Source: Pocillopora verrucosa (Eukaryota; Cnidaria; Anthozoa; Scleractinia; Pocilloporidae). From it: 64,000 nt of DNA. Below are positions 3,701 through 54,706 of this stretch, piece by piece. The notes beneath the pieces were generated by a model, which was given only the letters and a program-made list of their open reading frames with translations, had not been told where the DNA came from and made no database searches. Both the position numbers and the translations under genes were made by a program. Each line of letters starts with the position of its first letter. Position 1 is the first letter of the stretch. The stretch covers positions 16,027,131 to 16,091,130 of the forward strand of contig NC_089324.1 of NCBI RefSeq assembly GCF_036669915.1, given 5' to 3'.

Positions 3701-6700
3701 TTATGGGCAAAACACTTCTCTCTCACAGTACCGCTCTCAACCCAGGAGTATAAATGAATACCATCAAATAATCAAGGAAGCCCGATAAAATGCAAGGGGG
3801 TTACCTCCAATTGACTGGCATCCCATCCAGGGGGGGAGTAGGGATTCTTCTCATTGCTTCATGGAATTATCTGGAATAATCTCCAGCTGGATGGGCCACT
3901 TGATCCAAATGTAGACACTACACATCCAACTTGTTAAATTCGTTCTTTCTCATCAATACGTATTTACCTTCTGCATCAAGATGTTATGTTATTGAGAGGA
4001 GAAATTCCTTTTTGATCACTCATTTGACTGATCAAAGACACATATTTCTTTTTTTCAGGGTTACATACCAGAATTTTCCTCAAGCAATCTACCAGTAGAA
4101 TTAAAAAATAAAGGAAGAGAAATCTTTTCCAATATTCAAGATATTCATGACTGGCACTCAAGGTAAGGATACTTTTTTCCCGTTTAGTTATGATCCCGCA
4201 GATAATCGGAGTAACACATTCTAAGTCTTGTGTAGGAGAGGAAAAAAACTACGTAACGATATTAACTGATGCGACTACAATCCGCACAAAAATTAATTGA
4301 CACATAACGTCCACATACCAACTTTAAAGTTAAAATGTAGCTTGATACATACCATATACACCTCTTCCCACAACCAAGAAAGTGTGAAGGGAAATGTTTT
4401 GCGGTGAGGTTTCTCCCGTAAAATTTCGTACTGAATTCATTTCTATTTCATACATGGATATAAATTACTATTAGAAATATACTTATTTATATTTTCCCAT
4501 AAAATTGCCATCCAGTTATAGTCCGAACTAACTGAGTTTTTTCTTTCATTCTCGCCATCCAGCGAATTGTGCAGTCATTTGAAGTCCTGTGAAGATGAGC
4601 CTGATAAGATTGGTGAAGTTTTTGCAGAATCGGTAATTAATAATATCCATCGAAGAACACTTTTCTTTCATTTTTATTAAGTTATTAAAAACTTCTTATA
4701 GGTAAATGGCGAAATTTCCAATTGAGTGTCGAGAGTGATCCGGAATTTCTTTGGTTGTAATTATCTTTGCCTTGTGATTGGTCCAGACAACTCGCGCAAT
4801 CCTCTCAACCAATCAGATGCTAAACTAAAAAATCACGGTCACCCGCGTTTCCCCGCGCTTCAAGCAGTTTGCCCGTTTTCACTTTGAGTTTTCATTGGCT
4901 AATGATAGTGTAGATTTTGTTTGATTGATCGCTGGGATTGCGTCGGTTTTAGTTTTTCGACACTCAAGTGAAACCTGCCCATATAATCGGTACCAAAGGT
5001 TAGGAACATTTGTTTAAAGTGATTACCTCGTATTTAAACCATTTTATTTTTGAATTCATGACAGGAACACAAACTTGAAGAACTATACTCAGAGTACTGC
5101 AGAAACAAACCTAAATCGGACTTGTTGGTCCAAAAATATGCGGACTCCTTTTTCCAAAGCTGCAAGGAAAGACTCGGCCACAGACTACAGTTGGCTGATT
5201 ATCTTATCAAACCTGTTCAGAGGATAACGAAATATCAACTGCTGCTAAAGGTTAATATCATAATTATTTCTGTCACATGTATGGTTTTTGCAATGAGAGT
5301 AATGAGCCTGTCTGAGGGTAATGTTTGTCCTTGTATAAATGATAGTTTGTTCATTGTGAAAATAATGCAGACATATTTTTTAATGTAAAGTTACTCAAAT
5401 AAGTTACGTGTTACGTGAATTAACTATCTTAGAGCTCAGTTCAATTGGGTGCTGTAAAGCCAAAGTCAACGTAACCACACTAGCCAATAAAAACATAGGA
5501 AAATACAACAAGGAGCCAATCAGAGCTTAAAGTAAAAACAAGAGAACTGCTTAAAGCGCGGGAAAACGCGGGTGACCAAGTCACTATTAGGTTTAGTTTT
5601 GCATCTGATTGGTTGAGAGGGTGACACGAGTTTTTTTTCCGACCAATCACAGAGTAAGATAAAGTAAACCAATGCAATCTTGAATTTCTCCTTACACTCA
5701 GAAGAAAAAACTGTTGTTTTGTTCATTCATGTATCGGTGTTCATTAGGACAAATGTAATCTTACTTCGGTTTTCTTCAGGACATTCTGAAGCATACAGAA
5801 AGAGCTGGAGAGGATTGTAAGCAACTAGAGGTTAGATTTATTATTTTCAACTCGGGTTTCTCGTTCATTTCTCCTTTAAGTCCGCTGGCGTTGAACAATG
5901 CAAGAAAATTCTCAAAGTTATTGTTCTATTCTTTATCTCAGAGAGCTTTAGAAGTTGCCCTTCGAATTCTCAAGCGAACAAATGACATGGTTAATGTGGG
6001 GATGCTTCAAGGATTCGAGGTGAGCGAGTGAAGTGTACGCCAAGCAGCAAGACAAGTCTATCTTTAGAAGACGTCTTTACTTTGCCGTCTTTGTTCCATT
6101 TCTATCATACATGACCCTACACTGAGATTTAACGCCTTAAATGGAAACCATCTAATTGAAGGGTTTAGTTACCTTTGAACTTAACTCTTTCAGGTGAAGT
6201 CCGAGGAAACAGGAGATCTTTTACTTCAGGTGAGAATTGTACTGTTGTTCGCGAAAATGAAATAAAAAATAAAAGGAAAAACAACAAACAATTCTGTCGT
6301 AAAATAGGATGTGGTTATTCTAATAACACGTCAAAAGAGAAATATAATTGTTTGCCTCACGATGTGGTCACTTCGGAAGTGGATCGTGACGTTTCGACAG
6401 CATACTGCTAGTCTTTTTCAGGCGATGAGGTCGATTGAGTACGCATCGCCTATATCCTGTTTTGCTCAGCTGTATTTGGATGGAATTCCACTGCTGTGAT
6501 TGGTATATAATGATAGATTAATAACGTCAGATTGTATAGGAAATTTGTAAAATTAAGATGGAATGCACAGCTTCACTGCAGGTAAAAGGTAAAATGTGGT
6601 TCTGCCCAACCTTTATTCTCATCTGTCAGTGTTTAGGATTTCATTTTCATATTTTTTTTCCTGTCCAGGACGAGTTTATGGTGGTTGATGGAAAAGCAAA

Positions 6701-14935: not shown

Positions 14936-15250
14936 TTGGATGTAGGTATGAACCCACACGCTTCCCAAGGATCACAAAGACAGGTAACTGGATTCATATC
15001 AAACCAATAGTCGGTTTTTTGATTCTTTTTTACAGAATCAGATTACTCCATGGTCAAGTTTACGAAAGCTCAAACTACTTCTTAGAGAAGCTGCTTTGTT
15101 AAAAAACTCGCAGTAACTGTAGCACACTGGAGTGTAAATTCAGTACGCCCGCCAAAGGTAAACTTCCGTTTCCGGTCAAGTTCTATCATTTAACAGCCAA
15201 TGAGAACTCTTGCTCGTGGTTAGCACATCGATTTGAAAGAACTCATCATA

Positions 15251-18200
15251 ATGTTTACGTCCATTTCTAACTTTGTGGGTAAATTTCGTCGTTTTTCTCG
15301 CCGATGTTGTCTTGTTAATCTCACTGGGAGATACATAGCTTCGTCAAGTGTAAACAACAACCGTTCTGAGAGGAATTCTGTGGTATTTTTGAGAGCAAGA
15401 GAATATAAAGACCGAGTTGCGATCGTTGATTCGAATGGAAGCCACTCTTACGAGCGTATTCTATTCTTGAGTCAAACAATTGGGAATAGCATCTTACAGA
15501 GGATCAGAGGAAGAGACCTTTCTGGCCGCTGTGTTGCTTTTCTCTGTCCAAACGACGTTTCGTACGTAGCTACGCAATGGGCGATCTGGAGAAATGGCGG
15601 CATTGCAGTTCCTCTCTGCAATTCTCATCCTACAAGCATGTACGATTACATGATACAAGACTGTAATGCCGATTTAGTCATATCGTCCAGTGATTATGCG
15701 CCTAAACTGGAACCACTAGCTAGGGGACAAGAAGTCACTATTATGTTTTTGACAGATGTCGATCAAGTCTTAACGTCTGCTAATCAGATGTTGTCCAGTG
15801 AAGAGCTCACTGCAGTGGAAATGACGGAGCAATGCTGGGATGAGCGTGATGCAATGATTGTGTATACAAGTGGAACCACAGGGCAGCCAAAAGGTGTTTT
15901 GTCCACTCATGGAAATTTGAGGTTAGTTAGTGTTTGGACCAGTGGGCAGACTTAACTCATATAGAGAATATTGTTGAGCTAATCTAAAGGAAAGCTGTTA
16001 CTTATCTTGTCACAAGCAAAGGAGAACAAAAACACTCCAGACCTTTGGATTCTGCACTTCAATGTTGTACCACACAATAAGTATAACGTAGAAAGTAACC
16101 AGGCCCTCATTGTTAGTGCTACATGAGGAGTGCTTCACCCATAAGACAATTTTAGAACAATGGGAGAGGGGAAGGGGTCTGCTAATCAGTACCAGACCAT
16201 GCACAGACTTCTCGTGCAAGAGAAAAAATGCTCGCACCTACAGGCTACCCATAAGGGCCTGCTTGCAGCTTAGAATAACGATCATTACAAGCCTATTACT
16301 ACTCTCTTTGTCTCATACTTGTTACTAGTCTGATGAATAACATTTCTTTTCATATTCCACAAGCAAGCTCAAAATTTACTGTCATTTTAGTTCTATACAC
16401 TTACTAAACAAGTTAGTATTGGTAACAACATGATTTCAAGTGCTTTTTGATGGTGATAAGCACAAGTAATTTTTTCAAAAATGACAAAATTGCAAAAGCC
16501 CACAGGGTGAGTGCATTTTGTAGTCTTTGAAGATGAGAAATCATGTTGTTACTTGTTAATAATTTACATGAAAAACGCATCATAGAAAGCCAAGAAAGAC
16601 AAAATTCTGGTAGGATGCACACGCTATTTGCTAATTGCACTTGTGTTACAACTTAACACTCACTTTCAAAATGCATTCATTTTCAGATAATCAGACACGC
16701 GTAATTTTTTCATGTATATTATTAGGTTTGAAATTACCATTTTTCCTTCTAAATAGGTCAGTGTGATTGTATTTAATTAACTGATCATCAGTACCACTTA
16801 AATTTGTATTATTTTGTTGCATCAGATCACAGATTACTGCTTTAGTCAAAGCATGGGAATGGAAGGCAGCTGACTATATTATCCACTGTCTTCCACTTCA
16901 TCATGTCCATGGCATAGTAAACGTCCTTCTTTGCCCTTTGTGGGTTGGAGCCACATGTCACATGTTACCAAAATTTATGCCTGACAAGGTAAATAATTAA
17001 AAAAGAGTTAGTGCTTATTCTCCTTGCTGACTGCATAAATTTGTTGTCTCTTTATATTAGAAAGCTGGTAGTTAACTGCAACATATTGTGGTAGGAGTTT
17101 CATAAATTTTGCTGTTATTGTGCTGAGGAATTACACTCACTATAAATTGACCAGTGTTAGCTTGAATCTTACACAACTTTCATCAGTTTTAGGTAGCAAA
17201 CTGAAAAAGATTTTATTTTAAGGAAACTGTCCAAAAGTTAAAATATTTTATTGTATGACCCAAACAACTTGATGAGCACTTAACATAAAAAAAAACTTAA
17301 AAAGTGTCTGCCACATGATCATATAGTTTTAATTCACTTTAGGACAAGACATGAGGCACATCCACAAAGAGGAGGAGTTTAAATTCAGGGGGAGCACCTA
17401 TCTAATTGGGGGGAAGGGGGAAGGGAGTCCAAATTCATGGGGGAAAACAGCTATCTCATTGTTCTGAAAAAACTTGCAATAGGGTGAACGGGGCTGCATA
17501 AAGCCACATGGCACAGTGTAAGGTCTACAAGGTAAAAGAACTTGGAAGAAGGAGATAGATGGAAATTATAGATAAAGCAGCAGTTTTGTAATTAAAGCTG
17601 GTCAACTGAGTTCAGTCACACTTGTAAGAGGAAGGAAATATTTGAGCTGAACTGGGTCCTAACATCATGAGCTCTTGCTGAGTTAAAAAGTAAATATGAA
17701 TCAAGAGATTTTAAACATGCATGATGAACATAGCATAGAGTTATCTCTCCATATTCATACACAGGTGTGGGATATCCTAACTGGAGATGAGCCACGCCCA
17801 TCTTTATTCATGGCTGTTCCAACAATTTACAGCAAACTGATAGAGCACTATGGAAAAGAGAACCTGACGAAAGAAGAGAAGGAGAAAATAAGATTTAGAT
17901 GTGAACAACTCAGGTAGATTTAATTTGTGTTCTTGTTCTTTTTTCTGGAATTCCATTTTTTTTTCTGTATAAGCTGCTCTTCAGAGGCAAAACAATTATC
18001 ATGATCTAGTATTTAAGTTTTAAGATGGTTATTGTATTCTTGTAAATGTTCAATGTTAACCCTTCAACTCCCAAGATCTAATTCTTAATTCTCCCCAATA
18101 CTTGCGACACATTTCCTTGTAAATTAGTGACAAGTGTTTGGTTTTAGATTAAGATAAAAACTTGTACCTGATAAGTATAGGTATTTTCATTACCTGCTTG

Positions 18201-21200
18201 GTGGATTAATGTATGGATATTATAGAGAGAGGTTACATGTTAATCACTCTGGGAGTTAAAGGGTTAATGAGTTTGTGTGTTTGTTTGTCTATGATTTCAA
18301 ACTGTGGATAACAGATTAATGGTGTCTGGTTCAGCTGCTCTCCCTGAGCCTGTCATGAAAAGATGGAAGGAAATAACAGGTAAATATGACCCTTTAGAAT
18401 ATCACTACTTTAAAATCACATTGAAAATCCAACATTCCTTTATCTGACAAAATATATCATTCCCCTTGTCTTGTGGGTGGAACAAGGAAAAATTAATAGC
18501 TTCCCATGAAGAATCAAACCCTAAACCTTTAGATTCCACACCCTCATTCACCACTATTGTGCGACAGACACGTCTATAATAAGCTGGACCATTTATCCTT
18601 TACGTCCAAACATCAATATGCATATTCTCTATACTGTTCACTACACATTTTCCAAGGTGCTGACAAGGAGAATTTGTATAACAATCAGTATTTTTTTAGT
18701 TGGTGATCATTTCCTTTATTCTCGTGACCTTAATGTGTGATTCTATGGAGATATTGTAAGGAGAAATTAGATGCTGGTCACTCTAAGTTGTCAAAGGATT
18801 AAGTTTTAATCAAAGAAATCATTCTTGCAGTAAATCTTACCAATCATGAAATACTGAGTTCACACATCCAAAGCCGATTCCAACAATCCCTGAAAATCCT
18901 TTTGGAACCTTGAAAAAATACGGTTAAAAACCTTAAGGCCGACAAAATCCCCTCTTCCCCCCCCCCCCCCCTTACGTTGGTAAGAATATAGGAAACGTCC
19001 AACTTTGGTAATGAAGAAATGGGGGAAGACGGCCAGAATAGATAGTGAGCAGGTCCTCTTAGCGCTGCAGGACGCGCGTTTCTCCGCCCGTGTGAAGATT
19101 TGAGACGAGTCAAGAAGAGGTTTTATCAGTGCTATACCTCTTGCAGTCCTCTCGCAGGTTCGTGTCACTTAAGGCCTCATTCTTGCCCGCAGGCGAAGAA
19201 ACACTTGTGCTGAAGTGGTAATAAAAAGGGCTTGTTCGAAGGCTAAAACAATTGTCTCATTTACGTTTGGATTTTGGATTCAAATGTGACCAGCATTCCG
19301 TATATTGTTATAATTGGCATTGTTAAAAATTCGTATGAATAAAAAGAATACGGAACATATTAAAGATGCTTATCTATGTTTACTAAAGGACATACACTGT
19401 TAGAAAGATACGGAATGACAGAGATAGGCATGGCTCTATCGAACCCTCTGCGTGGACCAAGATTAGCGGTAAGATGTAGCAATCATCTAGCCAATCATAT
19501 AGTGAGTATAATAATACACGCATTTTGATTGGTTCCTCTCCCTGTTCTATTGAAAGGCAGACTTAGAAATAACGTCACCATTAAAACTTTCTGCCTACTG
19601 ATTGTAGAAAACAAATAGATTCCATGTTGTTCCATGTGTTTAATAATAGATTAGAGATGACTTCGAAATGTGGCTGTAGCGTATAGCGTCGGAATAAGTC
19701 TTGTGTAAGGCGTGAAGAAAAACTCAACAGAGGTTTATTTTCAGATAATATATCGACTCCAACGTGAAACATGAAAACGAGGCTGACAAGTGACAGCGTG
19801 AAGACTTACCGCATTCATCTGGGAGCTATCACTGAAAAGTCGCACGGCGACATGGAATTCATTGGCCAAATAGGGTTGAATACTGTATATTAATCCCACA
19901 CATAACTTTATCATGTGACTACTTATTTAACCGATAAAATGTTGTGTCAGCGCAGGGCTCTGTGGGAACCCCTTTACCTGGAACAGAAGTTCGGGTTGTC
20001 ACAGAGAACATGGATGGTGAAAAAGAGGTACGTGAATTTTTCATCATCATATTTGTATAAACCAACAGTTATTGGGTTGCAAATTTTAAAATTTTTTCTA
20101 ATTCCTGTCAATCAGGTTATAGCTGAAGGGAACGATTATGGATCTCATGTTTCGTCTTTCAACGAAGGCCGAGAAGGAGAGCTTCAAGTTCGTGGACCAT
20201 CAGTGTTTAAATGGTTGGTCTCTATCTCAGCATAAACTGCGTGTTGGTTTTCCACAGCAGTCAACGAAGTATAATTAGTAGAAGGAAATAGATTGCTGGT
20301 TGTTGGCTTATACGGATACATTTGTTCATCTAATTATTTTAACCCTTTACAACCTAACATTTGTATTCGTATTATCAAAGCTGTTCTCTCTACATTTCCT
20401 ATGGTACTGACAACGAGACTGTTTGAGTAACAATCAAAGTTTTTCAGGTTGGCTATCATTTCCTTTATTCTCGTGATCGTAATGAATGATTCAGCAGTAT
20501 TTCTGTAGGGAGAAATTCGATGCTGGTCTCTCCTAGGTTTAAAGGGCTAAGACACGGGGATGTACACTTTAGGCTGTTGGGTATTGTCAAGTAACATCTG
20601 CGTACCAGACTGCCTTTCTTATCTGCTGAAGCTAATCTCGGTTTCTGTGGTATGAATTTGCTAGGGATATTTCCATCTCCCAGTCCACGATATGGATGTT
20701 ACTCCAAGGCAGAGTGCAGCCCTGCATAATGCCAACATCCTCGGCATTTTAGGAGGTTGTTCAGACATGCTCTTCTCTGGTTTTGAGATAAACCGCACTA
20801 ACTAGGGTTAAAACTTTGTACAATCTCGTGAAGCTTCTATTTACCACACGAGAGTGTACACTTTTCAATTTACATCATTGTATCATTTTCCGCCAGTTAC
20901 TGGAATAAACCCGATGCTACAAGAGAAACCTTTACAGAGGACGGCTGGTTTAAAACAGGCGACACTGCTGGTAAATAAATAGCTCCTGCTTTAAGTCTCA
21001 GAGCGAAGTTTTTTCTCCTCCGAGTTATGCTTGCAGATATTTTTCCGTCTAAAATAAACGTCAGAATTTTTGTTGCGCTCACTTTCCAGCTTATGCAAAT
21101 GGAGTGTACAGCATTCTGGGAAGGACATCGGTAGATATCATTAAAAGTGGAGGATACAAGATCAGGTCAGAATCAAAATGCATGCTTGGAAGCAGAGTTT

Positions 21201-22452
21201 TGGTCGGCCTAGTGCCAGTTACCCGCGCAAGTTTAACGCTGTGGCCTGGGTTTGATTCCTGCCTTGTTCCGAGGATTTTTTCTAGTTCCTTCCTCGCTCT
21301 GCATAATCCCATACTTCAGGTTTCAACTCTGCTTGGAAATATAGAACGAAGGGCCACTTTTTTATGTAGCGAAGAAGCTTGTGCTAAAATACAATTTGGT
21401 TCGATGGATTTTAGTCTGTAGCCAACATTTGTAGCCAAATTGGGCTGTTAAGCAACGCGAAAATTCTTGGCGGTTTCTAATGTAACGGTGTTGACTTATT
21501 TTGGTGAAGGTTTGGTAGAGATGAGAGACGTTCTATCGCTTCGATTTGTGTTGAATTACTTCTTATTGTTCTCCTGGCGCCGAGTGATTTTTATCTGCGG
21601 CACTAATACATCCCAGGACTACTTTCCTATAAATGAGAATTTTTCTTAGACTGTTGTTGAATTAAAATGAGCAATTTTTCTTGTGAACGTTTTTCCCTGC
21701 AGTGCTCTTGAAGTTGAGCGACATCTCTTATCACACAATGACATTGTAGACTGTGCTGTGTTGGGCAAACCTGATCCCGTGTGGGGAGAGCGTGTGGCTG
21801 CAATTGTCACGCTGAGTCCTGGCAAGGTGTGCATCTGTCACTTGTATTGAAAAGTAGGCAGTCCAAGACTGCATGTGGCTACTGATGCAACACAATGTAT
21901 ATAGCAATGAAAAGAACAGAGGTTGAGTTATGAGGCTAGAAGGTACAAATCAAAAATTGGACTCTAGTATCCAAAATCAAAAATTGGACTTTAGTATCCA
22001 AAATCAAAAATTGAAGAGCGGTGTCTAAAATCAAAAATCGGACACTTATATCCAAAGTAAAAAATCGGGCGCTATTGTTCTAAATCAAAAATTGTTAAGG
22101 AGACAGAAGCCACCACTACTGAAATGCTTGCTGAGAAAGTCATCTACTTTAGCCAATTTCATCTGCTACAAAATCACCTTTTTCAAATCCTGGCTTGTCA
22201 ACTTTTACTGGCTGAACAAGGCGTTGCATTTTCATTCTTTTTGTTTGTCTTTTTTTTTTAGCTTATGATGTTTTTCCTCTGCTTGTTCGCACATAGAAAT
22301 TGAGTCTTGAAGACTTGAAACGATGGGCCAGCGGTTTCATGGTTCCGTACCAGATTCCCTCGGTCTTGTTGGAGGTCGAGGAGTTGCCACGGAACACTAT
22401 GGGAAAAGTGAATAAAAAAGAATTAAGAACAGTATACTTTGGTAAGGAATGA
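15251..22452 (+). CDS. ACSF3: Malonyl-CoA synthetase, mitochondrial (acyl-CoA synthetase family member 3)
   Basis: Exons 15251-15921, 16826-16988, 17765-17913, 18315-18379, 19389-19468, 19956-20027, 20116-20213, 20897-20970, 21090-21165, 21703-21826 and 22297-22452 join in frame to 575 codons; human ACSF3 has 576. The start is the first ATG. It opens an Arg/Ser-rich, acid-poor stretch ([20 protein letters not shown]) typical of a mitochondrial presequence. Adenylate-forming motifs are intact: [11 protein letters not shown] (P-loop, end of exon 1), [52 protein letters not shown] (hinge region) and [12 protein letters not shown] with the catalytic lysine near the C-terminus. The family converts malonate and CoA to malonyl-CoA with ATP, feeding mitochondrial fatty acid synthesis and clearing malonate. 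Nothing in the sequence suggests loss of function. Confidence 0.95.
18056..18266 (+). repeat. Dispersed repeat family C, copy 2
   Basis: Begins TTAACCCTTCAACTCCCAAG and ends 'tgggagttaaagggttaa', so the ends are near-perfect inverted repeats closing on TTAA. Intronic in ACSF3. A TTAA target is typical of piggyBac-type elements, but there is no transposase here. Confidence 0.6.
18480..18565 (-). repeat. tRNA-like B-box fragment
   Basis: On the minus strand 'ggtttagggtttgattcttc' resembles a B-box with its flanks. It is directly upstream of a family B repeat within an ACSF3 intron. Probably a SINE remnant; no tRNA could be folded. Confidence 0.3.
18593..18800 (+). repeat. Dispersed repeat family B, copy 1
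   Basis: Landmarks 'catcaatatgcatattctct', 'tactgttcactacacatttt', 'atttcctttattctcgtgac' and 'agatgctggtcactct'. Other copies are at 20341-20552, 29832-30042, 40237-40449, 49499-49710 and 58574-58763. Confidence 0.7.
19080..19260 (+). repeat. Dispersed repeat family E, copy 2
   Basis: A diverged relative of 1240-1500, sharing 'gcgaagaaacacttgtgc' and the following 'taataaaaagggcttg'. It lies in the ACSF3 intron before exon 19389-19468. A 13-base run of C sits just upstream, at about 18958-18970. Confidence 0.4.
20341..20552 (+). repeat. Dispersed repeat family B, copy 2
   Basis: Begins 'aaccctttacaacctaac' and ends 'ctcctaggtttaaagggc'. It carries 'tcatttcctttattctcgtg' and 'gatgctggtctctc'. 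Intronic in ACSF3. Confidence 0.7.
21186..21330 (+). mobile_element. tRNA-derived SINE remnant
   Basis: 'ttggtcggcctagtgccagt' (A-box region) followed about 40 bp later by GGGTTTGATTCCTGCC (good B-box match), then a pyrimidine-rich tail. It sits directly after ACSF3 exon 21090-21165. Confidence 0.5.
21942..22097 (+). repeat. Degenerate minisatellite, array 2
   Basis: Repeats of roughly 30 bp of the form 'atccaaaatcaaaaattgg' and 'gtctaaaatcaaaaatcgga', five units in an ACSF3 intron. The 'aaaatcggac' core is shared with the array at 14670-14935. Confidence 0.6.
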
Positions 22453-24413: not shown

Positions 24414-27400
24414 ATGTTCTTAACAGTCGTTTTAGCGACCAGCATCCTATCTTCTGAAATGGTTGCCAGTGGAAATATTCGCTCTAACACGATGTACAAG
24501 AAGACCCTTAGCAACAAAGATGCTTTGTGTAATGACGGAACAACAGCAATTTATTATATGGATGTTCAGGAGCCATCACAGTGGATTATATTTTTGGAGA
24601 GCGGAGCGTATTGTCTCACAAAGGCTCAATGTCATGCACGATTTGGGAGCGAGTTAACGAACGCTCTAATGACATCCAAGTACATGCCAAGCACAATCAG
24701 TGGGAAGGACTTGCTCTCAACAACTCGAAACGAGAATAAGTTATTCTACAATTATTCACGTGTTTTGATACCGTATTGCAGCAGCGATGCATGGCTGGGA
24801 ACACAAAACAGAGCATCAAGCAGTGTGGAACAGTTTGTTTTCAGCGGTAAAATCATTTTTCAAAGCGCTATTTATGAGCTGCTCGACCAAGGTTTGAGCC
24901 GAGCGCGTGAGGTTGTTTTAGTTGGGAGCAGCGCGGGAGGGGTGGGTGCGATCAACCACGTACAATGGTTACAAGACCTTATGTCATCCAGGAATTTAAA
25001 TGTTAGCATTTCAGTGATCATAGACGGTGGATGGTTTTTGAATTTCCGAGAGAGCATCACATCAAAGGTTGCTAAGGAATTCTACATCATCGGTAAGCCG
25101 TTATCAAGCGCATGTGCAGATACTACTCATGGGTATCCGTGCTGTTTGTCAGCTTCATGTATGCTTAAACGGGGATACTACCCATCAAACGTGCCAACGC
25201 TATTTGTGTTCAGCATGTATGATATTTATATCATTGGAGACATTGTCGCCCGTTTGTCGAAAAGAGTTTCCGTCGCAGATAACGGTGTGACAGATCTGAT
25301 AACTCTGATCGAGTCATATGGGGGTGCCATGAACCAATCTTTGTTTGCAATTGAACCCAGATCTTCAAATCTTAGTTACTTTGTGCCCGCGTGTTTTCAG
25401 CACACTTTCTTTGGCATGTCAAGTTTAAGAGATGAAGGAGAAGCGCTTCACTACAGTAGAATGTTCAACCAGGGAAATGCTTTTTTCCGGTGAGTTGTCA
25501 GAATTCTTTCATTCTCTCGTTCATTAAGTTTTTTTTTTTTTTCTATTTCTTTTGGTCGTGCAATCACTATACTTCGTGCTTTCGTTTGTGTCTCTGTTTA
25601 TTCGGTTTTTGTTGTTCCCTCGTTCCTTCGTTGGTTGATCATTTTTTTGTTCATGTCTTCGTTATTTGTTTGTTCTTTTGTTACTTAATGCTTTCGTTCC
25701 TTGTTCGTTCGTTCGTTTATTCGTTCGCCTTTTCGTTTGTTCGTTCGTTCGTTCGTTAGTTCATTCGCTCGTCAACTCATTCATTCGTTCCTTCATTCGT
25801 TCCTTCATTCGTTTGTCTACGCGTTCGTTCCTTCGTTAGTTCGTTTGTTCGTTCGTTTGTTCGTGCGTTCGCTCCTTCGTCCGGTAGTTTATTCGTTCGT
25901 TCGTTCATTCGTTTGTTCGTGCGTTCGTTCACTCGTTAGTTCGTTCCTTTTTTTCGTTGAAATAGTTGGTAGAATTAATTTTTTGATTACAATAATTTAC
26001 TTCTTCCTGAAAAATTTCTCCAGCTTGTCCAAAGTAACCGGAAGTTGGTTGCGTACAACAATAGGACGTGGAAACGAAATCATTAGTTTGCAGTCTACTC
26101 TTCAAAAATGGTTTGAGAAACGTCATCAATCTGTGAGAGTGACTGACACCTGTCTTGGACCAATGTGCAATCCCACGTGCTCGGAGTCACTTAAATTTGT
26201 GGACACCGCTGTGGACTGGGGAGAGGTGCTCAATTGGGTTATTCTATTCTTGTCCCTGGTACCCACTGGTGTTTGTGTAGCGGTTAAGATCTGTTTTATG
26301 GTCCAGTTACTTCTCTTGGCACGAAATAAAAAGCGATATCTTGGAGACCATAAGGAGTCACAGCAGGTAAAATTGTACTAGCAATAAGTTTATATTGCAA
26401 GTAGGGATCTACTCCCATTGACGAGGATAGAATATTCTGGTCGAGCGATGCGGATGCAACTCGGCTTTTTCTTGATGATTTGCTTGAGAGCGCTAAATAG
26501 CTCAAGTATTATGCTAACTTCCACTTTTGTACAATTCCGTCAGAATCGCTCTGTGTCGTCCGCTTTCAAACGCATTCGTTTGAAATCAGACGCTTTCGTC
26601 AGATTTCGGACAGTTTTATCCTATATTGGTCCGGTTGCACCCGATTTCAAACATTTTCGGACGGCTCTGTTTGATTTCAGACACGTGTGTCCGAATAAGG
26701 GCGGTTTCATTCGATTTTGGCCTGTTCTGTCAGATTGCGGACACGTCCGCCCCGTATCGGGTGGTTTCGTTTTCGGACAGATCCGCCTGATTTCGGATGT
26801 TTCCGTTTATAGGTGACTTGTACCCATACATGCCATACATTTCGAGCCATAGCCCTTGGTCAGAGAGAATGGCTATGACGAAGGACTAAGGCTCGAAACG
26901 TCAGCTTTGGAACTCTTTACGGTGGCCAGTTTACATCATCAACTCAGTTGATAAAATCAAATTATCATACTATATGATATTTGTCGTCATTTTTATTGGG
27001 ATTAAACATGTTGACTATTTTTATCTTTTTCATTTGTTTAAGGTGTCCGGTTATGGCGAGGCAATAACACTCTTACTGTACTCGTCCTCACAAGTTTCTA
27101 ATCATTCCCCAAGTTTCGAAAATCTGGAACCAGAAGATTTCAAAGAACGATCAATGAAGGAGGAGGACACTTTCTCTAATAATACAATATTTTACCGAAC
27201 AGCGCAATATCTACGTTTATTATTTCTCCAAAATCACGGGAACGAACAGTTTAAAAGCAATGCGATTTGCAAAGACGTTAAATGCTCGGAAAATAAAGAA
27301 AATAGCGGTTTTTCTCGTTCAACTATCAGGAATGATCCAGAAAGAAGGACAGACGGAAAGAAAGATTCCTGTATGTTGAGGATCAAGAACGCCACATTGA

Positions 27401-30400
27401 GCTTCAAACAAGGTGAATTTATTGCAATAGTGGGAAAGCATGGAGCTGGTAAAACAAAACTACTGAGTCTTTTGAGTGGAAAATTAAAGTGTGGATGTAA
27501 GCAGGTAAAACACAACTTTCTTCTTAAAATACCAGGAGTATTATCCCGTTTTGAAGATAATTCGAAAAAAGTCAACAAGTATCGGTTAAGTCCGCGGACA
27601 ACAATTAGATTTTCGCTGCTTCGCTGCTAACCGAAAAAGAAGCCAAAATAATCAGTTGCCTTTAAGCTTTTTTCTATCTTAGCATCCTTACCTTCGATTA
27701 GTCAGGTTTTCTGACACTCGCCTCTTCGAAGGCTCGAAATCTATCACACCTGCAATTTATTTAAAACTAAATTTTTGAAATAAGAGTTCAAGTCAGATAC
27801 CCTTAACACAATCTTTAGTTATCGTCCATGACAATTGCTCTGACGACTAAGTTCGAAGAGCACTTGCGCCAAAACTGGTGCTCAGACCCTTTTTCCATGT
27901 CTTCATCCGCCATTTGTAATTTTTACGCGGATTACCGCTGTACTCTTGGTCCCAGACTCTGGCTCTCCGTAGCTGGTATTGGTAACATCCCGTCAAAAGT
28001 CACTAATCGCCATTCCTTCATTTTACAGAAACATCTCAATATGCAAGGTAGCGCACAAAAGGAAGCTCGAAATAGTTATATTTTTCTCAATCAATTTAAG
28101 ATGCCTTATTATGGAGAGGTTACGGTTAGACAGTATTTAATTCTAACCGCTTTGATGCGAATGTCCAGAAAAACGAAAACTGTGGTCAAGTTGGAAAGAG
28201 TGGACCAGGTGATGTCCGAGGTATGTGTGATTAAAAAAAAGAGATGGCCGAAAAAAATGTTTAAACAAATATTGACTAAAGCATGAGTAAAGAAATTAGG
28301 AGACTTTTCAAACAAAAACGAAACGAGGAGGGTCGAAAGATTGTGCTTGTGGATAAATTTTGTCTGCAACCCGTGACCTTTATTAGGATGAAACGGTGTT
28401 TAGGAAGAGAGCGAGATATTAACGGCGTATTTTTATTATTCTCGCAGATGAGACTAAATTCTTTAGCAGAGGAAACGTTTGATGGGTCGAGTAAAGAGAA
28501 CCTTACCGATTTACAGGTTTGTTTGTATTTTAAAGCACATATCTACCGAGCGTCGTTAAAAAACCTCAAGCAATCAAAACAGCCGATCAGAGTGCTGGAA
28601 AATACCACAGAAAGCCAATGATAACTTAAAGAAACAAAAAAAAGATGACAGCCTGAAGCGCGGGTTAAGGAAAGTTACAATAAGTTATAGTGTTGCATCT
28701 GATTGGTTGAGAAAGCAGTTCATGTATCAGGCGTTGACCAATCACAATGCAAAGCAGAGTAAAACCAATGACTCCTCCCTTCCCCCCTCTAAAAGAGGAT
28801 GGCTCTATCCGTCTAAGATAATTTTTTCCCTTTGCTTTGGTGCTTTTTTTCTGTTTGTTTGTTTGTTTTTTTTTCTCGTTAATCTAATCTCTTCCTCGAT
28901 TTTTTCCAGAAGCGCTGTATGTGCCTGGCAAATCAGCTCATTACCAGACCTCGAGTCATATTCTTAGATGAACCTATTACAGGTAGAGTAAAGACTGGGT
29001 ATGACATAGGATATAAGTTAGCTCTAGAGCTCACCAAGGATGAGATATATCTCGAGCAGCACTGTTATAAATCAGTATCATTCATTGCTGAAATTTTCAC
29101 ATTTTTAGGTCTGGACTCTGCCTCTTCCATAGAAATGCTGAACATTCTAAAACACCTTTGTAACAATGGACACCTAGTAATAATGACCATGCAGACTCTA
29201 CCTGGTAAAACAGCCCTGATGTTCAATCAACTGGTTTTAGTTGCTGATGAACAGGTAAGCAAGGACCCCAATCCCCTCCCCCACGGAATTTTTCGAAACA
29301 ACGTCATCACTATGAAGTTTCTCGTTTATCCAACCATGACAGTATTTTAAATGGCATGGGACCTCCCATTAAGCTTCTATGACAGTCAGACGTTAACTGT
29401 GTTCTTAATTTTGACCCGCCAGGTTATATATTGTGGTGACCCTGCAGGACTCTCAGATTGCTACGATCGCGTGTCACAAGATAAAAGAGGATTAGAGGGT
29501 AATACAATCTTCGATATGTCTTAGGATTCGCGCGTTTTGTATTCTAGTGTAACTTAATCTTCAAACGATTTTCTTTACCTGCAATCACGTAATATTTTGG
29601 ATGCCTTTTTGCTGAGGAATTCCGTTGACGTATTTATTTTCCCTTTTGATCTATTTCCGCCATTTGGAAGACATTATTTCAGATATTCTGCGAAATGAGA
29701 AGATGATAGAGGCTACTTTGTTACAAAATCAGCCTGAAAAGTGGAGAGAGGACGACTTCCGCTCAAAAAACGCAAATAAGAATCTCTTGTCATCTTCGTC
29801 TGAAAGGTATGTCTGGAACAAACATTAATCATTAACCCTTTCACCCTAACATCAGTATGCGCATTCTCTATGCTGTTCTCTATACATTTCATGAGGTGCT
29901 GATGGGAAGAAATTGTTTAACAATCAAGAGTTTCTTGAGTCGGTGATATTTTCTTTCATCCTTGTGACCATAACGTTTGATTTAGGGGTGATATTGTACT
30001 GAAAATTAGATGCTAATCATTCTTAGAGGTCAAAGGCTTTAAACAACATTGTATTTGACTCTGGTCAATAAATTAGTGAAGGCTGATTCTTTGTTTCGCT
30101 TCATATACTATTAACAAATTGTCCTTGTTTTTAGTCCAGAAGATGGTGGATTCCTTACCAGGCTTTTTGTGATAGACTACAGAGCCTCGTTATCGAATAC
30201 TTTTGGACAGACAGTGTACCTGCCAATCATGTTCCTCGTATTTGGAGTGACAGCTGGAATAGTTTATTGGCAAGCAGAGACGCCGTTACAAATAATGACC
30301 GCCTACTGCGGTTCGTCTATTCCCAGTCTCTTATTCATGGGCTCGGTTCTTCACAAGCGAATCAACAAGAATTTGGAAGTGAGTGGAAAAAGAATTTTTT

Positions 30401-32506
30401 TTATTGCAGTATCCAGCTTTATTTCAAAACTATGGCGTTTTTTAATTGAGTATCACCAGACAGAACCAAAGTAATATCCAGAGCGAAAATATACGTCATA
30501 GAATTTCCTCGTAAGGCGATGTCAAGCGCGGGAAAACACAGCTGAGCGACCGAGCCTTGATTGCTCGTAGATATACACCCTTCGCTCTGATGAAGGGCTA
30601 AAGCTGGAAACGTCAGCTCTGGAACTCTTTACGGTGGCCAATTTACGTTAAGAGTTTAAAGCGCAAAGCGCCACGCAGAAAAACCAGTATATTCCCATAT
30701 GTCCTTCCACGCTTTTAAAAAACGAAAACTGTTTCCCTTACAGCATGAAAGATGTCCTTTTTACCTCAGAATGGTCTGCAGAACTAAAGGAATGTATTTG
30801 TTGATGAAATATTTTGGCTGTTTAAGAGAAGCATATATAGTTTTTAGGAAACTATAATCGGCACAGAGCTACTAGCAAGTTTGAATTTGCTCTAAAGAGC
30901 AACTTTTTATTTTCCCTTTTCTCAGATTCGACAAATAGAATCTTCAGAAAACGTCGGTTTCTCATACGAACACGTGATGCAGACATTTCTTAGCACATCC
31001 GCTGCCTATGTCATACCAGTGATCGCATGCTCAGTTTTGACTTACTTCATGGTGTTCACGTCATACAACTGGTGGCGATTCGTCCTAGTGACAATCACGT
31101 CACTGGTGTTGAACCAAACGTGGATTGCAGTTTACATGTTGGCAACTTACATTACACCGAGTAACGCGTGTCACGCAAGCGGCGTCATAGCTGCATTAGG
31201 AGGATTCTCCGGCGGATTCATTGTCACATGGAGTCAGATGCCCATAGGGTGGGTATCGCCGGTTTTATTTATCTGGTGAAGCATTGTTGTTTGACTACCT
31301 TTAAATCGGATTGGTTAGGTTAGCCCCAAGAAGAGGACTTCTTAGGGCTTAAATAGCGAGAAAGAGGTTTTATAAGAAAGGGACATTATGTAAATTCAAG
31401 GTTTTTGACGGGGCCTATTTGAGAGGAATGGATTATTAAAGAACTGAAATTTCGGACGGAGGGCACGTTATCGAGGGGTGCTTATTAATAATCTGTGGTT
31501 GAAAAAAGGGGCATTTAAGATGGGGGGGATTTTAAAGGAGTGAACTTATCAGAGCGTAAAGGTATTCTTGATAAATAATAACTATGTCTCATTCGGTGCT
31601 TTTGTCATTTCAGGTACAACTTATTATTTTACGTCAATCCTCAGTTCTATGGCTACTCTGCGATCACCAAGATCTTGTTAAAGAACGTTCGAATGAAATG
31701 TGAATACGAATCCACACTGAACTGTATCAGTATGGATGGTAATGCTGTGTTGGCCAGATTTGAGTTTGACTCGGTCAATCCCTATGGTTATTTAGTGGTA
31801 AGTCCAGAGTTTTCTTAGACTTACTTGAGTTTTACTTGTTAAGTGGGGGTGTTGTATAACACCAGAATCTGTTCACAGAACACTTTAGTTATAACCATTC
31901 ACCAAAGTGAAGCGGAGGTGGCCAGTGTTGGAAATTTACAAGCTGCGAAGCCGCGTGGTAAATATCCACTGCTAGCTATTGACACCGAGGTGAATAGTTG
32001 TTTTATTATAAACTAAAACAGTGAGATAATATAGCAAAAAACAGATGATTTTAACTCGTTTACTCTTGCAACGATTACAATATTTTTTTTGTTTTTTGGC
32101 ATTTTACAAAATTTTTACACTCTACTTATAATACACTACAGGACTCAGTTACAATAACGATTACAATATTTTCGGGCGCAAATCCTGCGCGAGTAGCTCG
32201 GATGTGAATAGCAAAAGATATTCCGAGTTTGAGTGGCCAATGAGAGCGCACCTTCAACGTTATCCGCTGATCTTGTATTTGACGATTATTCGCCGAAGGC
32301 AAAGTGAATATTGTTGAACAGCCGCAAGTGCTGGCAGGTGTGGACCAAAAGTGCTGGCTAGTCTGCCATTTTACCATTGGTGTTTGTATGGTCAAGAGGA
32401 GTGCAGCTGCTAAATGTAACCTTTTTTCTTTTAGATAATGCTCTGTATCACAGTGTTATCGCTGCTTTTTTCCTGGTTATTGTGTGACTTGAGAACATCT
32501 CGATGA
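24414..32506 (+). CDS. Notum-type carboxylesterase fused to an ABCG-type half transporter
   Basis: Exons 24414-25489, 26024-26366, 27043-27504, 28029-28220, 28448-28516, 28910-28982, 29109-29254, 29423-29498, 29671-29806, 30135-30378, 30926-31248, 31614-31797 and 32435-32506 join with matching phases to 1131 codons. Residues 1-20 look like a signal peptide. Residues about 30-415 match Notum/pectin acetylesterase: nucleophile motif GSSAGG (Ser173), YCSSDAWLG, acid Asp270 in FSMYDIY, His330 in PACFQH, and a Cys-rich end (CLGPMCNPTC). One hydrophobic helix follows (NWVILFLSLVPTGVCVAVKI). Then comes an ABCG nucleotide-binding domain: Walker A GKHGAGKT at 604-611, Q-loop Gln649, Walker B VIFLDEP with Asp734/Glu735, D-loop GLDS. 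The signature is LTDLQ instead of LSGGQ, and the H-loop His is Gln767. The last ~300 residues give about six membrane segments. Predicted layout: esterase outside, NBD inside, then the permease. Notum removes palmitoleate from Wnt; ABCG proteins export lipids and sterols. The substrate here is unknown. Misprediction of two genes as one cannot be excluded without a transcript, but no stop codon and no new start separates them. Confidence 0.8.
25600..25960 (+). repeat. TTCG-type tetranucleotide microsatellite
   Basis: Long imperfect runs of 'ttcgttcgttcg' with TTCA, TTTG and TTAG variants fill the first intron of the esterase-transporter gene. The open frames across it (rich in Ser, Phe, Val and Arg) are by-products of the repeat. 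Confidence 0.85.
26530..26815 (-). repeat. Degenerate minisatellite, array 3
   Basis: Repeated 'gatttcggacagt', 'gatttcagacacgtgtgtcc', 'gattttggcctgttctgtc', 'gatttcggatg': the reverse orientation of the core seen at 14670-14935. It fills much of the second intron of the esterase-transporter gene. Confidence 0.6.
26862..26960 (+). mobile_element. Retroelement tail with degenerate hammerhead-like motif
   Basis: Contains ATGACGAAGGACTAAGGCTC, then GAAACGTCAGCTTTGG, then 'actctttacggtggcca' and 'caactcagttgataaa'. It is nearly the same as 30582-30650, where the CTGATGA box is intact; here the first C of that box is A. I take it as the 3' end of a dead retroelement. Confidence 0.45.
28545..28790 (+). 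repeat. CCAAT-rich dispersed repeat family D, copy 3
   Basis: Shares 'gcatctgattggttgaga', 'gaccaatcacaatgca' and 'aagcgcggg' with the copies at 4700-4983 and 5440-5702. It lies immediately after exon 28448-28516 of the esterase-transporter gene. Confidence 0.5.
29832..30042 (+). repeat. Dispersed repeat family B, copy 3
   Basis: 'aaccctttcaccctaacatc' at the left, 'tgttctctatacatttc' within, 'gatgctaatcattctta' near the right end. Intronic. Confidence 0.7.
30582..30650 (+). ncRNA. Hammerhead-ribozyme-like retroelement tail
   Basis: Order of elements: GCT, CTGATGA (30587-30593), a short imperfect stem (about GGGC/GCTG), GAAA, CGTC, AGC. The bases GCT and AGC can pair as helix I. The ACGT between GAAA and the cleavage triplet GTC is self-complementary, as in minimal-stem-III hammerheads that act as dimers. 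Against it, an extra A follows CTGATGA and helix II is weak. The trailing 'ggaactctttacggtggcca' is shared with 26862-26960. Probably a Penelope-like retroelement remnant; self-cleavage is unproven. Confidence 0.4.
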
Positions 32507-49111: not shown

Positions 49112-51624
49112 TCACCACATTCCCTTCTTCGTGTGGTAATAGTGATGAATATACGGAGTGCGCATGCGTTCAAACTCCAGTCCTACGCTGACAAGCTGGT
49201 CCATTAGTGCATAGTCTTCTCCTCCCCAGGTCGTTTTATTGATCCCAAATCCCCCGGCTCGGTCCCAGTCCGACTTGTAGAGTCCAATTATCCCGTAACC
49301 AAACACTTGCCATAGTCCAACTAAGTTTGCCGGATTAGCACCACAGCGCATTTTAACGATGATTGGCGTGAAAACCATTCGACCTTCGATACAATGCTGA
49401 AAAAATACAATATTAAATGGGGAAATACTTCAAGATAAAGCTAAAGATTTTTCCGCTTGCTTTGTTCGTAGTTTTCGCTATATAGCAAAATCTCACTTAA
49501 CCCTTTTCATCCTAATATTAACATTCATATACTCCACACTGTTCTCTTTACATTTCCTATGATACTGACGGGGAGATTTTATTTTGACAATCAGGAGTTT
49601 CTCCAATTGATAATTATTTCCTCTTTTCCCATGACCTTTTCATTTGATTCAAGGCTGATTCTTTTAGGAGAAATAAGAGGCCAGACTCCTCTTACGGCTG
49701 AAAGAGTTAAATCCAGAAACCCTCAATTTCATCTCCTCTGTCAAACAAAATACGTGAGAAAAGACAATGACCGCGCAATGTTATTCCCAACCTCTTGGTA
49801 TTCAGGCCAGGTTACTACTTTTTTCTTATCATTTCCCGAAATAATGTACATGAAAAATTACGTGCTTTTGATTGGCTGAAAACGAGTGCATTCTTATATA
49901 ACACGAGTGCAAAGTTGTAACACGAGTGCAAATTACAAATAGCGCGAGCACGCTTTCAAAATTTCGTCTGTCTTTGCTTTTTCCTATGTTTATTCATGTA
50001 CATTATTAACAAGTAATGACATGATTTCTCTTGCAAATTGGTGTAATAGGCACTTGTAAATTTTTTAAAGACTACAAAGTACACCTGTCATTTAACCAGG
50101 TGATTTAAAATATATTGTTTCATTCCTTCTCGGAGCACAGGCTTCAGAATCTGGTATATAAGTTCATGGTAAAAATTCAAATTAAATGAGCTGCTGTCAT
50201 CCGCGTTTGGGAATAAAAATGTTGAATTTATGAAGCCAGGACTACTTAGAGTTTTCCACGTTCATCCGTTGAATCTTTAGCTCATTTAAGACAACTATCA
50301 AGTGGTTATCTTACTCTTTGAATCTCGAGTCGAGGTAAGAAGTAAATTTTTAAATCGAATTTTAATGGCCGAGAAAAAATAAGAAGCGTCTCTGGTGCGT
50401 ATTTGTTCTTTCAAGCTAGCAGCAACTAAATCAATTTCAAATTATTTGTTTTAACTAAACTTACTTTTCGGACGCTGTTGATAAATGGCGCTGCAATATC
50501 AAGATGAAGATCAACCATGATAATAATACTGTGCGGGTTTGATATAAGGTTTATTGCCTCAGTAAAGGAATGAGTCCGCGAATATTTCCCACTCTCTCTT
50601 CTGAACATGTATTTTGTCAACGAACTTTCCTTAAAAACCTTTTCCAAGTTGATGTCAGAGCTGTTGTAATCATAAATCACAACATGAAGATTTTGATCGT
50701 TCGTTTCATGTATAATCTTCTCGACGTTTTTAATGAAATGATGAAGCCATCTTCCAAGATTTTTAGCAGTTACCATCAGATATACGTCGACCGTTCTGTT
50801 CCATTGAAATCTCGTTGGATAACAGAGTTTCTTTTCTCCGTTGAACATGAACACATATTCAGATAACATCACATTGTTGCCACTTGTCACGTCCAGTAAT
50901 TCAACTTCGATCAGATATCGGTCGCCTCTTTTTGGATCTGTCTTTCTTTCCACATTTCTTATTTCGTTCAATTCAAACCTCCTATCAAAGAAACAATTAA
51001 CCAGTTTCATAGTTTCATATATAAAGATATAAGAAAAGGCCGCAAACTGCCATATGTAGTTTAGAATGATTGGGGAGATTAAAGTGTTTAGCGACTGGTT
51101 TGGATGCGTCCTTGTCATTTCTTTCTACGTCGCAAAGGTGTTCTCGGAATCGGTCACCTACTCGTCTTCCTGCTTCACCAATGTATAACTTATTGCAATA
51201 AATGCAAGTTATGCAGTAAATGACATTGGCGGAGGTACAGGTAAAGTGATCAGTGATCTTAATGGATCTCTTGGGTCCCGATATTTTCTCTACGTTATGA
51301 ATGAAGGACAAGTTTTGTATCGTGAGCGAGCGCACGTTCCAGATTGGCCATTGGTTTGAAATGAACTTCTGTAAAAAAAGTTGCCTATGTTTTTGTCACG
51401 TTTCAATTAGTGGGGGTTGTTAAAAGATAGTGCCAATCTCTGAATCGTTTTGGAGCAGTTTAGTTTTTTAAGAATGATAGATTTAACTGCGTGGTTGTAG
51501 GGGTGAGATGCATATGGCGGTGAGAGTGAATGGGATGCAGTCAGTGTTTTCCTTCTCAGCCGTTTGTAATGCTGACTGTCGATCAATTTGTTAAGAAAAG
51601 CAAGTTTTACCTGCTATACTCTCT

Positions 51625-51657
<33 letters not shown>

Positions 51658-54554: not shown

Positions 54555-54706
54555 ATGTTATTTGCCGGCTGGGAGGTCCGTATGGTGAAAAACTGTGACC
54601 GAGGTCTTGAAAATACTGCCCGAGGCCGTAGGCCGAGGGCAGCATTTTCAAGACCGAGGTCACAGTTTTTCACCATACGGACCGACCCTTAGCCGGTAAA
54701 TAACAT
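54555..54706. mobile_element. Foldback element with long inverted arms
   Basis: Left arm 'atgttatttgccggctggg', 'ggtccgtatggtgaaaaact', 'gtgaccgaggtcttgaaaat'. Right arm 'attttcaagaccgaggtcac', 'agtttttcaccatacggacc', 'agccggtaaataacat'. The arms of about 70 bp are nearly complementary around 'gaggccgtaggccgag'. No coding capacity. Pieces related to it occur near 55730-55760 ('aaatactgcccagccgg'). Confidence 0.8.

What the first reader, a model, noticed from the sequence alone, without database searches (positions are those of the whole stretch)
24414..32506. Notum-type esterase fused in frame to an ABCG transporter
Thirteen exons with matching phases join a signal peptide and a complete Notum-like carboxylesterase (Ser173, Asp270 and His330 all present) to a transmembrane helix, an ABCG-type nucleotide-binding domain and an ABCG permease. 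Notum (Wnt deacylase) and ABCG lipid exporters are separate proteins in the animals I know. One polypeptide with an extracellular lipid esterase tethered to a lipid-type transporter suggests coupled hydrolysis and transport of a lipidated ligand, or presentation of the esterase at the membrane. This is the best candidate for an undescribed system in the window.
Basis: partly seen in the sequence, partly recalled or inferred. Interest (0 to 1): 0.88.

Follow-up and report, generated by a model that had tools for sequence, protein, structure and literature searches.

The report
Notum-like esterase fused to ABCG transporter
This coral gene encodes one membrane protein that carries a Notum-like lipid-cutting enzyme outside the cell and an ABCG-type transporter inside it; it belongs to an old, apparently undescribed animal protein family, and in this coral branch the transporter's ATP-burning motifs have decayed while the enzyme stayed intact.

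Summary
Thirteen GT-AG exons (24414-32506) join in phase into 1127 aa: signal peptide, Notum-fold esterase with Ser173/Asp270/His330, one TM helix, ABCG nucleotide-binding domain (NBD), ABCG permease. It is one gene: orthologous fusions were predicted by others in Stylophora, Oculina and Montipora, and relatives occur in other corals and at least three named sponge genera; one sits on an assembled transcript, and 12 unnamed ORFs read esterase, TM and Walker A in one frame. Seven literature searches aimed at it listed no description.

It belongs to a coral subclade (12 of 12 rows, quick tree) whose four full-length NBDs lack the LSGGQ signature; three of four also lack the H-loop His. Seven of seven typical proteins compared keep both. 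The NBD is the best-kept domain in typical members (NBD/esterase distance ratio 0.29-0.56) but faster than the esterase here (1.30, 1.11-1.53). I read it as a membrane-tethered ecto-esterase on an ABCG scaffold with a failing ATPase, or a heterodimer subunit, not a self-sufficient hydrolase-exporter. The substrate is unknown.

The parts
24414..25489 (+). Exon 1: start codon, signal peptide (residues 1-19), most of the Notum-fold esterase; Ser173 at 24930-24932, Asp270 at 25221-25223, His330 at 25401-25403
   Evidence: model of this exon matches Notum best in PDB, E 4.1e-20, TM 0.70; 99% identical unnamed ORF P0088
26024..26366 (+). Exon 2: end of the esterase with Notum-like CNPxC tail, then transmembrane helix 1 (about 26232-26303)
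   Evidence: helix 429-470 in the P0003 model
27043..27504 (+). Exon 3: cytoplasmic linker and start of the NBD with Walker A GKHGAGKT (27433-27456)
28029..28220 (+). Exon 4: NBD, Q-loop region
28448..28516 (+). Exon 5: NBD; degenerate signature LTDLQ at 28502-28516 in place of LSGGQ
28910..28982 (+). Exon 6: NBD; Walker B VIFLDEP (about 28955-28975), intact
29109..29254 (+). Exon 7: NBD; D-loop GLD intact, H-loop position Gln767 (29192-29194) in place of His
29423..29498 (+). Exon 8: end of NBD
29683..29806 (+). Exon 9: linker between NBD and permease
30135..30378 (+). Exon 10: start of the ABCG permease
30926..31248 (+). Exon 11: permease helices
31614..31797 (+). Exon 12: permease, loop region before the last helix
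32435..32506 (+). Exon 13: last permease helix and stop codon TGA (32504-32506)

Best explanation
The gene encodes a divergent coral member of an old animal protein family, here called Notum-ABCG: a Notum-type serine esterase on the outer face of the membrane, one TM helix, then an ABCG half-transporter. Shown here: one gene, complete catalytic triad, Notum and ABCG folds, loss of the NBD signature in all four full-length members of the branch (and of the H-loop His in three), and NBD evolution faster than the esterase in this branch only. Inferred: the esterase is active on an acyl ester of an extracellular or membrane-bound ligand; the ABCG part no longer drives transport by itself, but, since Walker A and B are intact, may still bind ATP and now mainly holds, delivers or regulates the esterase at the cell surface. 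Typical members with intact LSGGQ and H-loop are the better candidates for coupled ester cleavage and lipid export.
For: Intact 13-exon ORF. Notum fold and triad. ABCG by sequence (ABCG5 best, 2.8e-21) and by the model of the Montipora orthologue (ABCG16, ABCG25, ABCG5, ABCG1 among the best). Fusions in corals and sponges; one on an assembled transcript (name line of P0018); 12 unnamed ORFs read esterase through Walker A in one frame. Signature lost in 4 of 4 window-type and kept in 7 of 7 typical proteins compared; H-loop His lost in 3 of 4, kept in 7 of 7. NBD/esterase distance ratio 1.30 [1.11-1.53] against 0.29, 0.51 and 0.56 in three typical sets. Permease 60.8-78.8% identical among window, P0002 and P0003, so the ABC half is still constrained. 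TagC of Dictyostelium is a precedent for an ABC-fused hydrolase shown at the cell surface to process a signal (PMC3743828, passages).
Against: Walker A, the Walker B Glu and the D-loop are intact in 4 of 4, which a fully abandoned ATPase would not need. Stylophora P0001 keeps the H-loop His. ABCG5 also has a degenerate signature (ISTGE) and works in a heterodimer (PMC7756502, passages). In TagC, transporter activity is needed to present the protease. With all four rows the NBD/permease ratio is not clearly above 1 (1.16, 0.96-1.36). No expression, localisation or activity data; only four full-length window-type proteins, three of them gene predictions by others.
Confidence: 0.55

Rival explanations
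1. Obligate heterodimer subunit, as in ABCG5/ABCG8: the window protein pairs with a typical Notum-ABCG paralogue; one composite ATP site (its own Walker motifs plus the partner's LSGGQ) stays active, and the dimer moves a lipid that the esterases release.
For: Walker A and B intact. ABCG5 has a degenerate signature, ISTGE (PMC7756502, passages). Typical paralogues occur in the same species, with equal longest-contig lengths: Stylophora P0001 and P0023, Oculina P0002 and P0014-16, and five unnamed contig lengths (read by eye).
Against: The lost H-loop His (3 of 4) and the lost signature fall in different composite sites, so both sites of such a dimer would be damaged. The NBD is less constrained than the esterase. 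No partner in the 64 kb window; the rest of the genome could not be searched.
Confidence: 0.28
2. Self-sufficient coupled enzyme-exporter: a homodimer in which the esterase cuts a lipid ester and its own ABC engine moves the product.
For: Fusion conserved for long; Walker A and B intact; permease conserved.
Against: A homodimer would have two sites without LSGGQ and, in three of four species, without H-loop His; NBD under relaxed constraint.
Confidence: 0.08
3. A decaying gene on its way to loss: the NBD is degenerating and neither half matters any more.
For: NBD relaxed; Montipora isoform X2 lacks the Walker A stretch.
Against: Open reading frame with good splice sites in the window and long open models in three other corals; triad invariant; esterase 59.5-84.1% and permease 60.8-78.8% identical to the window protein.
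Confidence: 0.06
4. Artefact: two neighbouring genes joined by exon picking.
For: No transcript of this species was available to me.
Against: Same fusion in proteins predicted by others, on an assembled transcript (P0018), in 12 single-frame ORFs; exon 2 itself encodes esterase end and TM1.
Confidence: 0.03

Closest known systems
Notum (palmitoleoyl-protein carboxylesterase, PF03283)
   Same: Fold (TM 0.70), Ser-Asp-His triad, oxyanion Gly, CNPxC tail
   Different: Notum is a separate protein; here the esterase is membrane-bound and fused. The position of Notum Trp128 is Ala65 here; Trp occurs in only 4 of 151 readable rows, presumably the four arthropod Notums. Clytia has NotumA and NotumO listed with a signal peptide (PMC4169000, passages), so the fusions look like additional genes.
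ABCG half-transporters (ABCG1, ABCG5/G8, plant ABCG16/25)
   Same: NBD before permease, closest by sequence and fold; ABCG5 also has a degenerate signature
   Different: Extra signal peptide, ecto-esterase and TM1 in front; signature and H-loop both changed in one chain
Dictyostelium TagA/B/C (serine protease fused to an ABC transporter of the abcB group)
   Same: Hydrolase and ABC transporter in one protein; TagC protease is shown at the cell surface and processes a diffusible precursor (PMC3743828, passages)
   Different: Other hydrolase family and other ABC subfamily (abcB, not ABCG); works-like precedent only, no homology of the fusion claimed
Plant ABCG24/28 and fungal Adp1 (recalled, not tested here)
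   Same: Ectodomain, TM helix, NBD, permease in that order (recalled)
   Different: Ectodomain is cysteine-rich, not an esterase (recalled); relation of the ABC halves not tested

Membership tests
Notum / PF03283 esterase fold family | Profile match and Notum fold | tested here: met
   PF03283 163.6 bits against a cutoff of 26.6; Notum best by sequence and fold
Notum / PF03283 esterase fold family | Ser-Asp-His catalytic triad | tested here: met
   Invariant in 4 window-type and 25 exon-1 rows
Notum proper (Wnt deacylase) | Trp next to the oxyanion Gly (Trp128) | tested here: not met
   Ala65 in the window protein (Notum numbering from PMC8172013, passages)
Notum proper (Wnt deacylase) | Orthology to Notum rather than sister family | tested here: inconclusive
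   Arthropod Notums sit on long branches, tool warning
Notum proper (Wnt deacylase) | Removes palmitoleate from Wnt | not testable with these tools
   Needs an enzyme assay
ABCG half-transporter | NBD followed by ABC2-type permease of six helices | tested here: met
   PF00005; PF01061 only in the orthologue P0003; ABCG folds best for the P0003 model; helices
Active ABC ATPase | Walker A, Walker B Glu, D-loop | tested here: met
   Intact in 4 of 4 window-type proteins
Active ABC ATPase | LSGGQ signature | tested here: not met
   LTDLQ in the window; lost in 4 of 4
Active ABC ATPase | H-loop His | tested here: not met
   Gln767 in the window; lost in 3 of 4, kept in Stylophora P0001
Notum-ABCG fusion family (named here) | Esterase, TM1, NBD and permease in one chain | tested here: met

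The most novel reading that the evidence does not exclude
An old animal family of surface esterase-ABCG fusions once coupled extracellular ester cleavage to lipid transport; in stony corals one branch has turned the ABC transporter into a pseudo-transporter, a nucleotide-sensing membrane mount that controls a Notum-like ecto-esterase acting on Wnt or another acylated ligand.
Probability: 0.3. Interest if true: 0.88.

Novelty: new variant of a known kind. Interest (0 to 1): 0.7.

Why it matters
It would be an animal enzyme-transporter fusion built from a Wnt-pathway-type esterase and kept from sponges to corals. It gives a testable link between lipid transport and extracellular delipidation, and a natural comparison between branches with intact and decayed ATPase that can show which half is still needed. 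It also shows that automatic names ('ABC transporter G family member 2', 'notum-like') each hide one half of the protein.

Tried and rejected
Two-gene reading: rejected for the family. Second copy inside the window: none; the tblastn hits are the gene's own exons and their read-through. The window's own genome could not be searched. A first esterase profile gave no hits, cause not diagnosed; it worked after the alignment rows were renamed. Placement of arthropod Notums in the tree is unreliable, so I do not say whether the fused esterase descends from Notum or is its sister. P0048 was not used to claim an origin before animals: source organism unknown, PAE match only 26.9 bits against a cutoff of 26.6. 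No NBD tree with animal ABCGs was made, for lack of searches. Oculina typical paralogues may be homogenised by gene conversion, which would lower their NBD distance; the sponge and cross-phylum sets point the same way. Linkage of paralogues was read by eye from equal longest-contig lengths and is not proof of one contig.

Full report
Gene model. I rebuilt the gene from the raw sequence. Thirteen exons, all with GT-AG introns and matching phases, give a 3384 nt CDS and 1127 aa; start at 24414, stop at 32504-32506. Exon 2 carries both the end of the esterase and TM helix 1, so the esterase is membrane-bound whatever happens downstream of it.

Domains. Pfam finds PF03283 (9.3e-48, residues 30-335) and PF00005 (1.8e-16, 588-737) in the window protein; PF01061 is not among its six hits but is reached in the Montipora orthologue P0003 and in P0014, P0018, P0019 and P0022. 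The window's own exon 1, folded with 24 relatives (mean pLDDT 78.7), matches Notum best in the PDB, E 4.1e-20 and TM 0.70. By sequence the esterase also matches Notum best (3e-34), and a four-row profile extends to the CNPxC tail. The ABC part matches ABCG5 best (2.8e-21). The model of P0003 (mean pLDDT 70.3, pTM 0.57) has ABCG16, ABCG25, ABCG5 and ABCG1 among its best PDB hits; its low pTM means that the relative placement of domains is not reliable.

Catalytic residues. Ser173, Asp270 and His330 are invariant in the four window-type proteins, in four esterases from different branches and in 25 of 25 exon-1 rows. Across 158 database proteins with an esterase-profile match below 1e-20, plus the window protein: Ser 159 of 159; Asp 156 of 156 readable (3 gaps); His 153 of 154 readable (5 gaps; the exception is P0050, an arthropod Notum, where the alignment may be at fault). 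The oxyanion Gly is 151 of 151 readable (8 gaps). The neighbouring Trp128 of Notum (PMC8172013, passages) is Ala65 here; Trp stands in 4 rows, presumably the four arthropod Notums. This is a reason not to assume Wnt palmitoleate as the substrate.

One gene, not two. The first homology search gave 13 proteins with E <= 0.001; four were fusions: Stylophora P0001, Oculina P0002, Montipora P0003 and P0004. P0002 and P0003 align across both contested junctions; P0001's model omits the start of exon 2 and has an unrelated C-end. The alignment search gave 78 proteins with E <= 1e-5, of 7994 candidates scored (a capped set). Among them are more fusions in Oculina and Porites evermanni, in the sponges Oscarella, Corticium and Geodia, and in EukProt entries P0018, P0022, P0026 and P0031; I take P0026 for Sycon and P0031 for Ephydatia from the format of their names (recalled). 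The name line of P0018 describes an ORF on an assembled transcript (comp27452_c0_seq1). Of the 158 proteins with a strong esterase match, 26 also carry a canonical Walker A after it. Twelve of these are short unnamed ORFs (P0027-30, P0033-35, P0111, P0132, P0140, P0154, P0175) that run from esterase through TM1 to Walker A and then leave the family soon after a Val, as a read-through of a GT donor would give (tails judged by eye). The window's exon 3 ends at about the matching place. So the fusion does not rest on splice prediction alone.

A divergent branch. In a quick tree of 58 esterase rows (SH-aLRT only), the 12 window-type rows form one clade (100) with a stem of 0.59, sister to nine typical anthozoan rows (union 99). 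In the four full-length window-type proteins the signature reads LTDLQ, FTELQ, LTELQ or LTKLQ; seven of seven typical proteins compared have LSGGQ. The H-loop His is lost in three of four (kept in Stylophora) and kept in seven of seven. The Q-loop Gln is replaced by Lys in P0002. Walker A, Walker B and the D-loop are intact in all four. Montipora isoform X2 (P0004) lacks the Walker A stretch. Damaged gene models among typical members also lack motifs: P0017 and P0023 lack the signature and Walker B, P0023 also Walker A, P0031 lacks Walker A; they were left out of the seven.

Rates. Mean amino-acid distances with 300 column bootstraps give an NBD/esterase ratio of 1.30 [1.11-1.53] for window-type (4 rows), 1.31 [1.11-1.53] without P0001, 0.29 [0.20-0.39] for Oculina typical paralogues (3), 0.51 [0.37-0.65] for sponges (3) and 0.56 [0.47-0.67] across groups (3). 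NBD/permease is 1.16 [0.96-1.36] for window-type with four rows, so not clearly above 1; without P0001, whose C-end is misannotated, it is 1.42 [1.18-1.70]; typical sets give 0.69, 0.54 and 0.56. The NBD is thus the best-kept domain in typical members and not in the window branch. The permease remains conserved (60.8-78.8% among the window protein, P0002 and P0003), which argues against plain loss of the ABC half.

Topology and mechanism. Hydropathy shows an N-terminal signal segment, TM1 at 425-460 with basic residues after it, and permease helices. This puts the esterase outside and the NBD inside (inference). The most likely reading is a surface-tethered esterase on an ABCG scaffold that can bind ATP but is poorly able to hydrolyse it. 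The main rival is a heterodimer with a typical paralogue, for which ABCG5's ISTGE signature is a precedent (PMC7756502, passages). Against it, signature and H-loop losses hit different composite sites. TagC of Dictyostelium shows that an ABC-fused hydrolase can be presented at the surface to process a signal, and that there the transporter activity is needed for it (PMC3743828, passages); this is analogy only.

Relation to Notum in cnidarians. Clytia has two Notum genes, listed with a signal peptide and responding to Wnt3 knock-down (PMC4169000, passages); 'ABC transporter' does not occur in that paper's main text. The fusions therefore look like additional genes and not the cnidarian form of Notum.

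Literature. Seven searches aimed at this fusion or at cnidarian and sponge ABCG or Notum genes listed no paper that describes it by title or opening of the abstract. I saw 20 of 54, 20 of 41, 20 of 708, 15 of 42, 0 of 0, 3 of 3 and 7 of 7 matching papers, and only open-licence PMC papers are held. That it is undescribed is likely, not proved. Three further searches were for background. Five papers were opened for passages only; the one held nothing of use.

Limits. The source organism is not given; the closest named relative is Stylophora (78% overall, 84% in the esterase), so a pocilloporid coral is likely (inference). The window's genome could not be searched. There are no expression or activity data here. 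No bilaterian fusion appeared among the listed hits, which were capped; that is not proof of absence.

Noticed in passing
P0095 and P0114 (Paramuricea clavata records): Octocoral records nest inside the stony-coral window-type clade, near the window and Stylophora: contamination, mislabelling or an unexpected history.
   Followed up: no
window 26896-26928 and 30608-30640: A 33-base element lies in introns 2 and 10 in the same orientation; none expected by chance in shuffles. Probably a dispersed repeat.
   Followed up: partly
window 25700-25950: Intron 1 is filled with a degenerate TTCG-type short repeat (seen by eye).
   Followed up: no
window 49112-60385, minus strand: What look like two tandem copies of a glycosyltransferase gene: the exon at 57400-57810 matches PF02709 and PF05679 (chondroitin N-acetylgalactosaminyltransferase); the first exon at 59303-60382 matches no Pfam family; the other copy was not scanned.
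   Followed up: partly
window 15224-22452, plus strand: Upstream neighbour is an AMP-binding (acyl-CoA synthetase type) gene: PF00501 1.1e-26 on 15254-15955; a C-terminal-looking exon lies near 22297-22452 (by eye).
   Followed up: partly
window 5062-5385, plus strand: RhoGEF domain exon (PF00621 1.9e-14), part of a larger gene upstream.
   Followed up: partly
P0048 (unnamed source, 1592 aa, contig 7265 bases): Esterase, TM, NBD with LSGGQ and permease in one protein from a short contig; looks like an intron-poor protist and could push the fusion's origin before animals. PAE match is borderline.
   Followed up: no
P0004 (Montipora isoform X2): Predicted isoform that lacks the Walker A stretch but keeps esterase and permease.
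   Followed up: no
equal longest-contig lengths: Window-type and typical paralogues seem to be linked on the same contigs in seven cases, as if in a cluster.
   Followed up: partly
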